In this document: piece by piece, positions 10,920 through 19,775 of the stretch
How the letters are laid out: each line of letters begins with the position of its first letter
Position numbering within the stretch: the first letter of the stretch is position 1
Source: a virus
Strand: one strand, 5' to 3'
IMG/VR virus record: IMGVR_UViG_3300048837_000101
Span: 1 to 24,288 of that record
DNA: 24,288 nucleotides
Made by a program: the position numbers and the translations under genes
The notes under the pieces: generated by a model
Database searches by the model: none
Seen by the model: only the letters and a program-made list of their open reading frames with translations
Told to the model about the DNA's origin: nothing

Positions 10920-11180
10920 ATGCCATCAGCAGAGCAGCTCGCAGCGCTAAAAGAACTCATCATGCCGGTACTCGGTACGATCTCGGCGCTGGTCACTGCT
11001 CTGCTGGCCTTCTACCAGAGCAAGTGCCGGCGGGATCTCGACATCGCCTACGGTGAAATCCGTTTCCTCAAGACTGGCAAACGCACTGTCAGAAAGCCGG
11101 GTCAGATCCTCAGGAAGAAGAAAGACCGGGAAATGGTCGAAGCGCCCGAAGGCATCAAGGATCACGACCAAAGCGCTTAA
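10920..11180 (+). CDS. Small one-TM membrane protein, possible holin or lysis protein
   Basis: An 86-aa protein with one clear hydrophobic segment (about 12-32, ELIMPVLGTISALVTALLAFY) and a strongly basic, charged C-terminal half (SKCRRDLD..., RKPGQILRKKKDRE). The strong GGGGAG site lies 12 nt after the RCC1 gene stop. Size and topology, and its place at the border of the lysis region, fit a holin- or spanin-like role. No family is recognised, and the amidase is more than 3 kb downstream with the glycosyltransferase block in between. It could equally be an unrelated membrane protein. Confidence 0.6.
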   Translation: MPSAEQLAALKELIMPVLGTISALVTALLAFYQSKCRRDLDIAYGEIRFLKTGKRTVRKPGQILRKKKDREMVEAPEGIKDHDQSA

Positions 11181-11193
11181 AGGCTTGCGGTAA

Positions 11194-11248
11194 AACGACA
11201 TCCCCACTAGACCTTTCTGTAAAGAAAATCTAGTGGGGATGTTCCGTT
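11194..11248 (+). promoter_or_regulatory. Long hairpin covering the ribosome site and start codon of the first glycosyltransferase gene
   Basis: A perfect 14-bp stem (ACATCCCCACTAGA at 11198-11211 pairs with 11229-11242) is extended inward by TTTCT/AGAAA (11214-11218 with 11223-11227). It is extended outward, past a 2-nt bulge, by AACG/CGTT (11194-11197 with 11245-11248). The GGGG ribosome site (11235-11238) and the first two bases of the TTG start (11247) are inside the structure. There is no T-run after it, so a simple intrinsic terminator is unlikely; it looks like a translation-control hairpin or a moron boundary. Confidence 0.75.
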
Positions 11249-11894
11249 GAAAAACGTGTTCGTACTGCGGGTCAACGACTACCGCCCGGACCTCTGCCGC
11301 TACACCATCCCGACCGTCAAGCTGTGGGCGAGTCGCATAGGCGCGCGCTACACCGAGATCACGACGCGCGTCTTCCCCGAATGGCCGGTCACCTACGAGA
11401 AGCTTCAGGTTCACCGGCTTGGCGTTGGTGCCGACTGGAACATTCTCGTGGACGCTGACTTCATGCTCCATCCGGAGCTACCGGACTTCACTGAGACGCT
11501 TGACCGTAACACCGTAGGGATGCACTACGGCTTCAACGCTTCGACGATGTTCATGAACGACATCTACTTCGAGCGCGACGGTAGGGACCTTGGCATCGCT
11601 GGCGGCTTTGTCATCACGTCCCGGCTGACCCACGACCTCTGGACTCCGCTCGAGTTCGACTGGCAGACGGCGCGGCAGAGGCTGCGCCGAGAGTTCATCG
11701 TTGACGAGTACTGCCTGTCGCGGAACTTGGCGAAGTTCGGCCTCTACCACTCAGGCGTGGAGCGCGGACCAGAGATCGCCGAGAAGATGATCCACATCGG
11801 CAACGAAGAGAAGACCGACACAGAGCGCGCCTTAGACGTAGAGACCGCAAGACGCATTTACCTAGACTGGTTCGGACGGGAGCCCGAAGAATGA
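11247..11894 (+). CDS. GT-A type glycosyltransferase
   Basis: A 215-aa protein with a Rossmann-like opening (KNVFVLRVNDYR), a DAD metal/nucleotide-sugar motif at residues 69-71 within ILVDADFMLHPE, a mid-protein GGFVITS segment, a DEY motif near 153-155 and a late MIHIGNEEKT with a His that may complete the metal site. This is the pattern of small GT-A enzymes, in the broad GT8-like style. Donor and acceptor are unknown. The start is TTG at 11247; its GGGG site is locked in a hairpin. Its last four bases overlap the next start (ATGA), so the three glycosyltransferase genes form one unit. Confidence 0.75.
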   Translation: MKNVFVLRVNDYRPDLCRYTIPTVKLWASRIGARYTEITTRVFPEWPVTYEKLQVHRLGVGADWNILVDADFMLHPELPDFTETLDRNTVGMHYGFNASTMFMNDIYFERDGRDLGIAGGFVITSRLTHDLWTPLEFDWQTARQRLRREFIVDEYCLSRNLAKFGLYHSGVERGPEIAEKMIHIGNEEKTDTERALDVETARRIYLDWFGREPEE

Positions 11895-15160: not shown

Positions 15161-15331
15161 GCCTCCAGGCGCGATGTTCTTGGTGTACCTCCGGGCGCGC
15201 CGTACCGAGCGCAGCAGGAGGACCGGCCACACCGTCGCCAGCGTTAGAAAGACTATGACCGCTATAGCGCCCATAGCCTCTCCAAAGCCGACAAAGAACA
15301 CGACTATAGAGCTGCTTAGAATGTCAGGCAT
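15068..15331 (-). CDS. Possible small membrane protein at the convergent junction
   Basis: An 87-aa ORF on -, ATG at 15331, overlapping the end of the preceding - gene by 16 nt, as last gene of that operon. Residues 8-42 form one long or two short hydrophobic segments (SIVVFFVGFGEAMGAIAVIVFLTLAT... split by charged EAM), followed by RSVRRARRYTK. The C-terminal ~31 residues are antisense to the amidase. Only a weak GAAG-type ribosome site is seen. The hydrophobic pattern in otherwise non-coding DNA supports it; the overlap with amidase counts against it or against its full length. It might be a holin, but there is no direct evidence. Confidence 0.45.
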   Translation of the reverse strand: MPDILSSSIVVFFVGFGEAMGAIAVIVFLTLATVWPVLLLRSVRRARRYTKNIAPGGLGGRFQPSGRSCDVQADLGHIEVGTGLSGR

Positions 15332-16245: not shown

Positions 16246-18273
16246 CTACTTTCTGTAGCGTGTCGTGGTGAAGCCGGCGACTTTGATAGGCAGACCTTCC
16301 GCCCACCAAGGCAAGGTCGCCATCAGCTCGCAGAACTCTTCAATCCCAGGATTCGGGAAATCGTCGGCAGCTCGCTCGGCGATCAGTTCGTCATGTACAG
16401 TCAGGACAGTCTGCCAGTGGCCGGTGGCTTCGATACGGAGCATCGCTGCTGCCATCAGGTCACGCGAGACAGCCTGCGAGATGTTCTCCGTCAGGCGCCC
16501 GCCGTAGGTCTTCTGGAGAGACCACTGACGGGTCTTGCTGTCCACGCCTTGGTAACGGATGACCCGGATCTTGTCCTGGCCTCCCCAGGGTGCGCGTTCC
16601 CAGCCGACAGACGGCTTGTAGTAGCAAAGCTTCCGTCCGCTCGGTAGCTCGGCGCAGAGGTAGTCGCCTTGCATAGACCACGCCACTCGATTGACCGTGT
16701 ACTTCTTCCCTCTGTTCTCAATCGCTGCCATCGCTGCCTTGGAGTAGTTGCTCCACAGCTTGACCACAGGCGAGTGAACCTGGCGGTACGTCCTGACGGC
16801 AGCTATGGCTAGATCTTCGCTGATCTTCTGCCCAAGGTTCTCGCAGGACGCGCGGAACTTCTCGGCGCCCATCTGGTAGCCACAGCCGAGAGTCGCCGTC
16901 TTCCCGACGAAGCGCTGGTCCTGTGTCACGTCAGCCAGATCAACGCCGAAGATCTCGGTCGCCAGCTCTTCGTAAAGAGGCTTGTTGTCCCTGAAGGCTT
17001 GGAGCCCTGCCTCGTGTCTCGCAAGCCAGAAGAGGACACGCACTTCGATGGAGGCGTAGTCGGCAACGTCTAGAACCTTACCCTTCGGTGCAACGATCAT
17101 CCCGCGAAGGCAGGACGAGAAGAAGGACATCGGATCGCCGTAGCAGAGCCTGATCATCTCGAGGTCGAGATCCTTGATCATGGCGATGGCTTGATCGGTG
17201 TCCTTGATCTTACCGCGCGGGAAGTTCTGTGGCTGGACACCAAGTCCGCCCCATCTTCCGGTACCGGCTGCGTGGTACATCAGGATGTCGCGGAGCCGGC
17301 TGTCCGTTCTGCTGCGCTTCTCGAACGCCATGTACTTCGCCGTGGACGTCTTCGAGATAGCTTGCCGTATCTCGAGAAGGCGCTTGGCCTTCCCTTCGAC
17401 AAGACCAGCTTCGATGGCACCAGAGATTGTCTTTGCCTGGGTGTTGAGAAGGACGGCGCCGTTCGCCTTGAGCCAGCTGAGCGTAGCGGCTCGCTGGTTG
17501 GTGGACTGGACCTGTCCTCCCGTCAGCTTCCTCGTCTCGTTGGTCAGAGCGACAGTCTCTTCTTCGATAAGCTTCAGCGCGCACTTGACGGCTTTCCGGT
17601 CAACGTGGAACCCGCGCATGTTGATGGCTTGGTCGAGAAGCCAGACGTCGCGCTCGGTCTGGTGGAGCGGCGGCAGCTTGAGGAAGAGCCCGGTCTCGGC
17701 GAGTACGTCCTTCACGCAGTACTCGATGATTTTCCGTAGCTCGTCTTCGTCCGTGTGGCGGGTCTCTGGATTGTTCTTTGTCGGCTTCCTCGGCTTGCAA
17801 TGCTTGAGCATCAGCCGATGGCCTTCCTTGTCCTTCTGATGCGGCAGCTTCAGAACCTTGCACGCGCCTTCGAGGTTTCGCGGAAGGGAGCGCGCAGCAG
17901 CCATGGACGCGGTACATATCCATCTGTCGGTGGGGATCTCCCTGATGTCGTGCATCAGACATTTCCGGCCAACGACGTAGCGAGTGATCAGCTGCTCGAA
18001 GAGTGCGTTGTGCGCCACGAGGACCGTCGTTGGCTCTTGAAGCGCATCAAGGAACTCGAGGAAGTCTCCAGCGGACTCTTCGTGCGTGATCGTCGGCGAG
18101 TAGGAGCGAACGCGCACAGCTGTCCCAGCGGCAAGTTCTTCCTTGGTGCCGATGACCCACGCTACGCAGAGGAGCTTAGTAGACGGGTGACGCGCGTACT
18201 CGTAGGCGCCCACCTTCTTCAGGTCTGCCTCTGAGAAGGTCTCGTAGTCCATGATCATGTAACGTATAGCCAC
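16246..18273 (-). CDS. DNA polymerase, family A, with 3'-5' exonuclease
   Basis: A 675-aa replicative phage polymerase of the PolA family. Exonuclease motifs: Exo I D9-Y-E11 (DYET), Exo II Asn89 (HNALFEQ), Exo III Tyr185-xxx-Asp189 (YCVKDV). Polymerase motifs: A with Asp405 (DYASIEVR), B around Lys458 and Tyr466 (FVGKTATLGCGYQ), C His627-Asp-Glu (VHDE). All key residues are present and there is no N-terminal 5'-3' exonuclease domain, typical of this phage group. The start is GTG at 18273 with AAGG 8-9 nt upstream; ATGs at codons 6 and 8 are possible but have worse sites. A structured RNA region lies just upstream. Neighbours DUF2815, DUF2800 and SNF2 form the usual phage cassette. Confidence 0.93.
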   Translation of the reverse strand: MAIRYMIMDYETFSEADLKKVGAYEYARHPSTKLLCVAWVIGTKEELAAGTAVRVRSYSPTITHEESAGDFLEFLDALQEPTTVLVAHNALFEQLITRYVVGRKCLMHDIREIPTDRWICTASMAAARSLPRNLEGACKVLKLPHQKDKEGHRLMLKHCKPRKPTKNNPETRHTDEDELRKIIEYCVKDVLAETGLFLKLPPLHQTERDVWLLDQAINMRGFHVDRKAVKCALKLIEEETVALTNETRKLTGGQVQSTNQRAATLSWLKANGAVLLNTQAKTISGAIEAGLVEGKAKRLLEIRQAISKTSTAKYMAFEKRSRTDSRLRDILMYHAAGTGRWGGLGVQPQNFPRGKIKDTDQAIAMIKDLDLEMIRLCYGDPMSFFSSCLRGMIVAPKGKVLDVADYASIEVRVLFWLARHEAGLQAFRDNKPLYEELATEIFGVDLADVTQDQRFVGKTATLGCGYQMGAEKFRASCENLGQKISEDLAIAAVRTYRQVHSPVVKLWSNYSKAAMAAIENRGKKYTVNRVAWSMQGDYLCAELPSGRKLCYYKPSVGWERAPWGGQDKIRVIRYQGVDSKTRQWSLQKTYGGRLTENISQAVSRDLMAAAMLRIEATGHWQTVLTVHDELIAERAADDFPNPGIEEFCELMATLPWWAEGLPIKVAGFTTTRYRK

Positions 18274-18299
18274 GACGAATACCTTCTACGAAGGAGACA

Positions 18300-18382
18300 C
18301 CAGAAGGCCGGATTGGGTACCGACCGGCGCTTCCCCTGTCCCGAAGGACAGCATCCCTACCGCGTGTAGGGAACGCTTCTGG
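18300..18382 (-). ncRNA. Predicted four-way-junction RNA upstream of the polymerase
   Basis: The stretch can fold completely on the - strand. A 7-bp closing stem pairs CCAGAAG (18382-18376) with CTTCTGG (18306-18300). It encloses three hairpins: TCCCTAC/GTAGGGA with a 5-nt loop (18372-18354), CTGTCC-TTCG-GGACAG with a UUCG-type tetraloop (18351-18336), and GCCGG/CCGGC with a 12-nt loop (18328-18307). The UUCG tetraloop, closed by C-G, occurs in the - strand sense, the direction of transcription of the operon. It lies between the DUF2815 stop (18393) and the polymerase GTG (18273). It is not a tRNA: spacing and loops do not fit. Function unknown; a cis-regulatory leader or processed small RNA are options. 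Confidence 0.55.
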
Positions 18383-18392
18383 CGATCGAACT

Positions 18393-18995
18393 CTAGAAGC
18401 CTTCTTCGCTGTCACCGTCTTCGTCGTCTTCACCGCTATCGTCGTAGTTGTCTTCGTCCTCTGACTCGTCTTCAACCTCGTCGAAGACTTCCTCAGCGGG
18501 ACGGGCGCCGCTGAACGGATCACCGTCCCGCAGCTTTTGGATGTTCTTGAGACCGAACGCCACGCCTTTGTTGCCCTTGGTGTCGTAGGCATAGGCCAGC
18601 AGCTCAGCGCGAGCGTAACAGCCAGCGTAGAACTCTTCGTCGGTCGAGAGCCTGTTCTTCTTTCCGTCGATCAAGCCTGGCTTCGTCTTGCTGGTCGCAG
18701 CAACGAAGATGACGTTCTCGCCATAGCCGTCAGTGCCTTCGCGCTCGGCGCCGTCACGGAAGGGGGAGCGAAGCTTCTTCGGCCACTTCGTCTTGTCGGC
18801 TCCCCACTTCTCCACCTTTGCACTGAAGGCTGCCTTTTTGAGCGCCGTCAGATCAGTCTTTTTGCTGAAGAGCATCGTCAGGCCGAACTTAGCTTCCTGC
18901 TCGTCGAAGGACTTGGCCTTGAACACAGCCGGGTAGCTGACGCGGAACTCTGGCGTAAGGCACTTCTTCTTCTCGATGTCCATCTTCTTTGCCAT
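18393..18995 (-). CDS. ssDNA-binding protein, DUF2815 family
   Basis: A 200-aa protein with the DUF2815 (phage SSB-like OB-fold) pattern: TPEFRVSYPAVFKAK near 14-28, FGLTMLFSKKTDL, and the block FYAGCYARAELLAYAYD...GVAFGLKNIQKLRDGDPFSG (122-162). The C-terminal 33 residues are almost all Asp/Glu/Ser and end EEGF, like the acidic tail with terminal Phe that bacterial SSBs use to recruit partners. It should coat ssDNA and recruit the polymerase and recombination enzymes. AAGGA is 10 nt before ATG. Three TCGAGAG repeats lie just upstream of that site. Confidence 0.82.
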   Translation of the reverse strand: MAKKMDIEKKKCLTPEFRVSYPAVFKAKSFDEQEAKFGLTMLFSKKTDLTALKKAAFSAKVEKWGADKTKWPKKLRSPFRDGAEREGTDGYGENVIFVAATSKTKPGLIDGKKNRLSTDEEFYAGCYARAELLAYAYDTKGNKGVAFGLKNIQKLRDGDPFSGARPAEEVFDEVEDESEDEDNYDDSGEDDEDGDSEEGF

Positions 18996-19012
18996 GACTT
19001 GTCGTTCCTTTT

Positions 19013-19037
19013 TCGAGAGTGTCGAGAGTTTCGAGAG
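19013..19037 (-). repeat. Three direct TCGAGAG/CTCTCGA repeats before the SSB gene
   Basis: TCGAGAG occurs at 19013-19019, 19022-19028 and 19031-19037, exactly 9 bp apart. On the coding strand the last copy ends two bases before the AAGGA ribosome site of the DUF2815 gene. Nothing else in the 84-nt gap is evident. It could be an operator or an RNA site for autoregulation by the SSB itself, as T4 gp32 does; this is a guess from position. Confidence 0.5.
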
Positions 19038-19079
19038 CGTTGCTGCCTGGGCGGTTTGACCCTCCTTCTGGTAGCCTTC

Positions 19080-19775
19080 CTACTTCCGACGTTTAAGGAC
19101 TCTACCGCTTCTCGCGCCAGCTGCTTTACGGCGGCTGGCGCCTTTAGCGACTGCTCTGGCCTTCTTCTTTTTCTTCCCGGCCACTCGACGCGCAGCTTTC
19201 TTCTTCGTCTTCTTTTTCACCTTGTCTTTCCTCCCTTGAAGCTTAGCAATCCGGCGCTCGGTATCACTGATCGACTTGGTGAAGTCGATCTTTCTTTCAC
19301 GCAGCTTCTGCTCAGCTGTCGCGATTGTCTTCTTCGTCTCTTGCTCGAAAGCCTTCAGCGAAGCCTTGTCCTCTTTGATCCCTTGCTTCATGTCGGCGAC
19401 TTGCGACCTAACAAAGCCTTTGCGTCCCCCAGGTGTAGCGTTGTGCTCAGCGACGATCTTAGGTCCGTCGTCAGACCATTCATCGCCGAAGACGTCAGAC
19501 GCTTTGATGGCGGCGATCTGCTCGCCGTCGAGTAACTGGCCCGGCGTCACATCGTCGGCGACGAGGTCAGCCGTTCGCTCTGCTGTCACGACGTCTGGGT
19601 ACACCACAGCCTTGTTGAGCAGGTCGGTGACAGACGAGGACTTGTTCATCTCCTCGACGGAGACGAAATGCCCATCCGCTAGAAGGTGGATCTTCCCTTC
19701 CCGCGACACGCCGAGGAGCGCTCTCTTCTTGAATTGAGCCGCAGACTTGAAATCGCCTAGATGCATCTCGGTCAT
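19080..19775 (-). CDS. Lysine-rich protein of the recombination operon
   Basis: A 231-aa protein of unknown family. Residues 1-115 are a mixed-charge domain without known motifs (SREGKIHLLADGHFVSVEEM, VTAERTADLVADD). Residues ~124-185 look like a charged coiled coil (KEDKASLKAFEQETKKTIATAE...). Residues ~160-231 are dominated by Lys, Arg and Ala (KKKTKKKAARR, GKKKKKARA, KGASRRKAAG), similar in composition to histone H1-like bacterial and phage tails, so DNA or RNA binding is likely. Start overlaps the DUF2800 stop (ATGA). Placement between the nuclease and SSB suggests a recombination or DNA-condensing helper. Confidence 0.7.
   Translation of the reverse strand: MTEMHLGDFKSAAQFKKRALLGVSREGKIHLLADGHFVSVEEMNKSSSVTDLLNKAVVYPDVVTAERTADLVADDVTPGQLLDGEQIAAIKASDVFGDEWSDDGPKIVAEHNATPGGRKGFVRSQVADMKQGIKEDKASLKAFEQETKKTIATAEQKLRERKIDFTKSISDTERRIAKLQGRKDKVKKKTKKKAARRVAGKKKKKARAVAKGASRRKAAGARSGRVLKRRK

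What the first reader, a model, noticed from the sequence alone, without database searches (positions are those of the whole stretch)
18300..18382. Compact four-way-junction RNA just before the DNA polymerase gene
Nearly every base of an 83-nt stretch can be accounted for by one closing stem and three hairpins, one with a C(UUCG)G tetraloop in the transcribed sense. The only gap of more than 100 nt in the replication operon is here, between the SSB and polymerase genes. Structured RNAs have been reported beside DUF2800 and DUF2815 phage genes, but I know of none exactly here with this shape.
Basis: partly seen in the sequence, partly recalled or inferred. Interest (0 to 1): 0.8.

Follow-up and report, generated by a model that had tools for sequence, protein, structure and literature searches.

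The report
Folded RNA between two phage genes
The stretch between the phage's single-strand DNA-binding protein gene and its DNA polymerase gene can fold into a four-armed RNA, as claimed, but no relative was found; in related phages the same spot carries many unrelated hairpins, terminators or tRNAs, so this is most likely one local version of a common folded spacer that sets how much of each protein is made.

Summary
On the transcribed (minus) strand, 18298-18384 folds into an 8-9 bp closing stem enclosing three hairpins, one a C(UUCG)G tetraloop, in the only gap over 100 nt of the replication operon (119 nt, SSB to DNA polymerase A). Its stability is only moderately unusual: z about -3.4 for the 87-nt core and -2.3 for the whole gap. 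Shuffled gaps give a comparable layout in 1.5% of cases, and about 2% of windows in this contig have z below -3. No homologue was found in Rfam, by ARAGORN, by blastn, or by a single-sequence covariance model over about 320 loci, so the covariation test cannot be run. What recurs is the site. In 31 gaps (30 related phages and the window) the SSB-polymerase gap is far more structured than random segments or other gaps (median z -2.8 against -0.24 and -0.44; p = 5e-6), but with unrelated structures: terminators, perfect hairpins, tRNAs, branched stems. Best reading: an idiosyncratic intercistronic RNA structure separating SSB from polymerase expression. It is not shown to be a conserved RNA class. 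A better-supported structured RNA, with covariation, sits before the polymerase gene of Roseobacter phages and is reported in passing.

The parts
18376..18384 (-). P1, 5' strand of the closing stem (CGCCAGAAG)
   Evidence: pairs with 18298-18306
18352..18375 (-). P2 hairpin (CGU-U-CCCUAC ACGCG GUAGGG-AUG), one bulged U
   Evidence: upper stem probability 0.99
18336..18351 (-). P3 hairpin CUGUCC-UUCG-GGACAG, C(UUCG)G tetraloop
18326..18335 (-). mostly unpaired linker GGGAAGCGCC between P3 and P4
18306..18325 (-). P4 hairpin; alternative register 18307-18328 has near-equal energy in the isolated core
   Evidence: -41.1 vs -41.0 kcal/mol
18298..18306 (-). P1, 3' strand of the closing stem (CUUCUGGUG)
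18282..18294 (-). small hairpin CCUUC-GUA-GAAGG containing the polymerase Shine-Dalgarno (GAAGG); the P1 3' strand region CCUUCU is also complementary to it
   Evidence: MFE of the isolated gap; not the preferred fold with longer downstream context
16246..18273 (-). DNA polymerase family A gene, GTG start, Shine-Dalgarno GAAGG 8 nt upstream
   Evidence: PF00476, E 1.7e-18
18393..18995 (-). single-stranded DNA-binding protein gene (PF10991 Enc34_ssDNA-bd), acidic C-terminal tail ending in F
   Evidence: E 6.2e-44
18274..18392 (-). 119-nt SSB-polymerase intergenic gap holding the structure; no promoter-like or U-tract terminator-like site

Best explanation
The element is an intercistronic RNA structure in the SSB-polymerase messenger. 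Shown: the sense-strand gap can fold into a closed four-arm structure; related phages often place some strong but non-homologous structure (terminator, hairpin, tRNA, branched stem) in the same gap; here there is no U-tract and no promoter-like site. Inferred: the fold works by being a stable roadblock just after the SSB stop codon. It pauses RNA polymerase or marks a processing point, and it protects the 3' end of the upstream SSB message from 3'-5' exonucleases. The phage then makes much SSB and little polymerase from one operon. A small hairpin over the polymerase Shine-Dalgarno may add translational damping. The exact four-way shape is probably not itself under selection across phages.
For: SSB-polymerase gaps of 39-160 nt (31 distinct, the window included) have fold z median -2.81, against -0.24 for 124 same-length random segments and -0.44 for 99 other gaps of the same loci (Mann-Whitney p 4e-9 and 5e-6). 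Contents vary: 9 of 31 with a U-tract terminator, 15 of 31 with a perfect hairpin stem of at least 9 bp, 4 of 31 (window included) with a long stem closing a wide loop; tRNA-Thr in L076, a tRNA in Croceibacter phage P2559Y, a tmRNA-like piece in L059. Hairpins also lie in this gap or just after the SSB gene in phiSa2wa, Mae-Yong1326-1 and MW202496. The flanking order DUF2800-SSB-polA is shared. No homologue of this particular shape was found. The T4 precedent is that SSB (gene 32) mRNA is the most stable of its phage and is cleaved by RNase E near its stop codon (PMC3014915).
Against: No transcript data exist. The window structure has no U-tract and is not a recognisable intrinsic terminator. 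About half of the 31 gaps have z above -2, so structure there is frequent, not universal. The statistic pools different structure types and uses approximate gene ends. A translational operator would occupy the same place. Thermodynamic excess of the window's own gap is modest (z -2.35 for the whole gap), so part of the fold could be chance.
Confidence: 0.5

Rival explanations
1. Translational operator or leader of the polymerase gene: the junction binds a phage protein (polymerase or SSB) or switches between P1 and an anti-Shine-Dalgarno pairing, repressing polymerase when it is in excess.
For: The structure ends 25 nt before the GTG start, the Shine-Dalgarno GAAGG can pair in CCUUC-GUA-GAAGG, and the P1 3' strand CCUUCU is complementary to AGAAGG, so mutually exclusive folds are possible. 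T4 polymerase gp43 and SSB gp32 repress their own translation through leader RNA structures (PMC3014915).
Against: No conserved loop or homologue. With downstream coding sequence included, the Shine-Dalgarno hairpin is no longer the predicted fold. The purine-rich/pyrimidine-rich complementarity is short and easily met by chance.
Confidence: 0.17
2. Largely chance: a GC-rich 119-nt spacer that happens to fold well.
For: 1.7% of shuffles of the gap are as stable and 1.5% have a closing stem of at least 8 bp with at least 3 branches. 2.4% of 90-nt windows in the contig have z < -3.
Against: It sits exactly in the one gap position that is significantly structured across relatives. Sense-strand G-U wobbles are used in three helices.
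Confidence: 0.2
3. tRNA-like or decayed tRNA element, possibly an RNase P or RNase Z processing signal.
For: The cloverleaf topology has three arms with P4 directly abutting P1. tRNAs or tRNA-like pieces occur in the same gap in L076, L059 and P2559Y.
Against: ARAGORN and Rfam find none. There is a 4-nt UUCG loop where a 7-nt anticodon loop should be, a 9-10 bp arm where the 4-bp D stem should be, no T-loop consensus and no CCA.
Confidence: 0.05
4. DNA-level element such as a single-strand initiation site or replication origin formed on the displaced strand.
For: Lies between replication genes; both strands fold.
Against: Three G-U wobbles favour RNA sense. No iterons or long inverted repeats and no GC-skew switch at this point.
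Confidence: 0.04
5. A genuinely conserved but rare structured RNA (riboswitch or sRNA) whose relatives are simply not in the collections searched.
For: Nearest polymerase relatives held are only about 45-56% identical, so close relatives that could show conservation are missing.
Against: Moderately related phages have other structures or no gap in this position. Single-sequence model hits never exceeded chance level (best E 0.23).
Confidence: 0.04

Closest known systems
Intrinsic terminators and 3'-stabilising hairpins after SSB genes in phages with the DUF2800-SSB-polA gene order
   Same: Same position immediately after the SSB stop codon, strong sense-strand pairing, precedes polymerase
   Different: The window has a closed four-way junction and no U-tract
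T4 gene 32 and gene 43 leader operators and gene 32 mRNA processing (PMC3014915)
   Same: Structured RNA adjoining SSB and DNA polymerase genes, used to set their levels
   Different: T4 uses a 5' pseudoknot and a small hairpin operator; no four-way junction; no sequence relation tested or expected
Structured RNA before DNA polymerase of Roseobacter phages (L062, L073, L088, RDJL3 = L397), unnamed
   Same: Multibranch RNA with long closing stem directly upstream of the polymerase gene
   Different: Conserved with compensatory changes; its model does not match the window
DUF2800 and DUF2815 RNA motifs (Weinberg et al. 2017; recalled, original not held)
   Same: Reported beside the same gene families; DUF2815 is the older name of the SSB family (own knowledge)
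   Different: No Rfam family matches the window at gathering score; at E up to 10 in 18200-18500 only two chance-level hits, neither on the element

Membership tests
Intrinsic (Rho-independent) terminator | GC-rich stem-loop | tested here: met
   P2, P3 and P1 are strong stems
Intrinsic (Rho-independent) terminator | U-tract directly after the stem | tested here: not met
   0 terminator-like sites in 17900-19100; sequence after P1 is UCUCCUUCG
tRNA | Scores as tRNA; T-loop, anticodon loop, CCA | tested here: not met
Known Rfam family (including riboswitches and phage motifs) | Match at gathering score | tested here: not met
Conserved structured RNA class | Homologues with the same fold | tested here: not met
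   R1 over about 320 loci, 2.59 Mb: best non-self E 0.23, none in an SSB-polymerase gap
Conserved structured RNA class | Compensatory base changes | not testable with these tools
   No homologous sequences available
Intercistronic structured element of the SSB-polymerase gap | Strong sense-strand fold between SSB stop and polymerase start | tested here: met
   z -3.1 for the window's gap in the pooled run (-2.35 with 4000 shuffles); median of the 31 gaps -2.81
Intercistronic structured element of the SSB-polymerase gap | Effect on SSB:polymerase expression ratio | not testable with these tools
   needs transcript and protein data
Roseobacter phage polymerase-leader RNA (model R2) | Match to covariance model | tested here: not met
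   no window hit at E up to 5

The most novel reading that the evidence does not exclude
The four-way junction is a specific, so far single-member regulatory RNA that folds into a compact three-dimensional shape and binds a phage replication protein or metabolite to control DNA polymerase synthesis, with P1 and the anti-Shine-Dalgarno pairing as alternative states.
Probability: 0.08. Interest if true: 0.6.

Novelty: new member of a known kind. Interest (0 to 1): 0.3.

Why it matters
The individual structure is one idiosyncratic instance and would matter little on its own. The pattern behind it is more useful: across phages with this replication module, the junction between SSB and DNA polymerase is often occupied by strong but unrelated RNA structures. 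That suggests convergent selection for an insulator between a protein needed in large amounts and one needed in small amounts. It is testable with term-seq in cultured members such as Staphylococcus phiSa2-type or Roseobacter RDJL phages.

Tried and rejected
Near-homologue searches of IMG/VR with the polymerase, SSB, DUF2800 and SNF2 proteins and with polymerase and SSB profiles gave relatives but none close; the DUF2800 and SNF2 queries gave nothing. Two degenerate DNA patterns of P1 with and without the tetraloop gave about chance numbers of hits, and none scored with the model. The first SSB profile was too diverse to use. Gap blastn against phages and plasmids gave only 20-35 nt chance matches. 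The L005 leader looked like a homologue at first (11-bp closing stem, z -4.45), but the model did not find it and its arms differ. tRNA, Rfam, direct-repeat and GC-skew checks were negative. A 22-codon ORF inside the gap (ATG in P2 to the UAG in the Shine-Dalgarno hairpin loop) was considered as a leader peptide and set aside for lack of a well-spaced ribosome-binding site. No structure prediction of proteins was needed.

Full report
What is there. The window is a 24,288-base virus record. The minus-strand replication operon runs, in transcription order, SNF2-type helicase, two small proteins, DUF2800/Cas4-like nuclease, a 231-aa protein, SSB (PF10991), DNA polymerase A. The SSB stop codon at 18393 and the polymerase GTG at 18273 leave a 119-nt gap, the only one above 100 nt in that operon; the next largest is 84 nt. 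SSB ends in an acidic tail with a final phenylalanine, and the polymerase GTG has a GAAGG Shine-Dalgarno at 8 nt, so both gene ends look right.

The fold. On the transcribed strand 18298-18384 gives P1 (8-9 bp), P2 (about 10 bp with a bulged U in the predicted fold), P3 (5-6 bp, UUCG loop) and P4 (5-6 bp), at -43.1 kcal/mol, z -3.38. P1 and the upper parts of P2 and P3 are near certain in the ensemble; P4 has two registers of equal energy in the isolated core (one dominates in the longer fold), and a linker of about 10 nt is loose. Three G-U wobbles in P1, P2 and P4 favour the minus sense. Downstream, CCUUC-GUA-GAAGG can sequester the polymerase Shine-Dalgarno, but with the start of the coding region included another pairing is preferred.

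Is it more than chance. The core gives 1 of 200 shuffles as stable; the whole gap gives z -2.35, 68 of 4000 shuffles as stable, and 59 of 4000 with a closing stem of at least 8 bp and at least 3 branches. In a sliding scan 2.4% of 90-nt windows have z below -3, and several stronger structures exist elsewhere in the contig. So the thermodynamic case taken alone is moderate.

Homologues. No Rfam family and no tRNA. A covariance model from the single sequence found itself and nothing above chance in 87 sources (the window plus polymerase- and SSB-bearing loci), 72 further SSB and genome loci, and two sets of 80 loci fetched with stem patterns. Blastn of the gap found only short chance matches in phages and plasmids. 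The nearest polymerases are about 45-56% identical, and those phages mostly have a small ORF or other genes before polymerase, with little or no gap. Hence the covariation test is not available, and the structure is at best private to a narrow lineage.

The site, not the shape, recurs. In 145 loci both SSB and polymerase were located. For 31 distinct gaps of 39-160 nt (window included) the fold z-score has median -2.81, against -0.24 for random segments and -0.44 for other gaps in the same loci (p 4e-9 and 5e-6). Contents are heterogeneous: U-tract terminators in 9, perfect hairpins of at least 9 bp in 15, long stems closing a wide loop in 4 including the window, a tRNA-Thr (L076), a tmRNA-like piece (L059), and in named phage records a hairpin (phiSa2wa), two hairpins (MW202496), stems after the SSB gene (Mae-Yong1326-1) or a tRNA (P2559Y). 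This pattern is expected if selection wants some stable barrier between SSB and polymerase and is indifferent to its form.

Mechanism. Shown: position, sense-strand fold, recurrence of structure at the site, absence of U-tract and promoter-like sites. Inferred: the fold stabilises the upstream SSB message and/or attenuates or separates polymerase expression. T4 gives a precedent for heavy post-transcriptional control of both genes: gene 32 mRNA is the most stable T4 message and is cut by RNase E near its stop codon, and both gp32 and gp43 repress their own leaders (PMC3014915). A polymerase-leader operator is the main mechanistic rival; chance is the main null.

A contrast case. Directly upstream of polymerase in Roseobacter phage RDJL3 and three IMG/VR relatives (L062, L073, L088) lies an RNA that does pass the tests the window fails: it is conserved, with 39 pairs of which 5 show changes on both sides among four sequences, strong model matches to its own members (expected by construction) and no Rfam match at gathering score. 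It does not match the window.

Verdict. The structure is present as described and probably functional in a generic sense. It is a new example of a common kind of intercistronic element, not evidence of a new RNA class.

Noticed in passing
L397 (RDJL3, OK283305) 2502-2640; L073 2740-2880; L062 2757-2911; L088 2773-2900: Conserved multibranch RNA directly before DNA polymerase in Roseobacter phages, 5 pairs with changes on both sides among 4 sequences, no Rfam match at gathering score; followed by two more strong hairpins (about 2635-2712 of L397). A better structured-RNA candidate than the window's.
   Followed up: partly
L397 2400-2497 and the same region of L088: A further branched element with a long closing stem (GCUGCCUCUCA...UGAGAGGCAGC) just upstream, so the gap before the RDJL3 polymerase appears to hold an array of folded modules.
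   Followed up: no
L059 2908-2989: 82-nt stretch matching Rfam tmRNA over gathering (56.4 bits; not recovered when a short stretch was rescanned) yet without room for an mRNA-like domain: a mini tmRNA or tRNA-like piece between SSB and polymerase.
   Followed up: partly
L036 2560-2691 (identical in L037): 14-bp closing stem with 4 inner hairpins just after the SSB gene: the nearest thing in shape to the window element, without sequence similarity.
   Followed up: partly
L242 4082-4190: tRNA-Leu-like sequence in the SSB-polymerase gap that neither ARAGORN nor Rfam accepts: possibly a decayed tRNA.
   Followed up: partly
L076 2908-2982; L400 (P2559Y) 2598-2685: tRNA genes placed between SSB and polymerase; the P2559Y gap is about 720 nt and its tRNA has a 4-base anticodon call.
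   Followed up: no
window 11161-11280: Strongest structure of the contig (z -8.3), between the ORF ending at 11180 and the next at 11247.
   Followed up: no
window 15196-15300: Strong structure (z -6, minus strand) between convergent genes where the plus-strand and minus-strand blocks meet, probably a shared terminator region.
   Followed up: no
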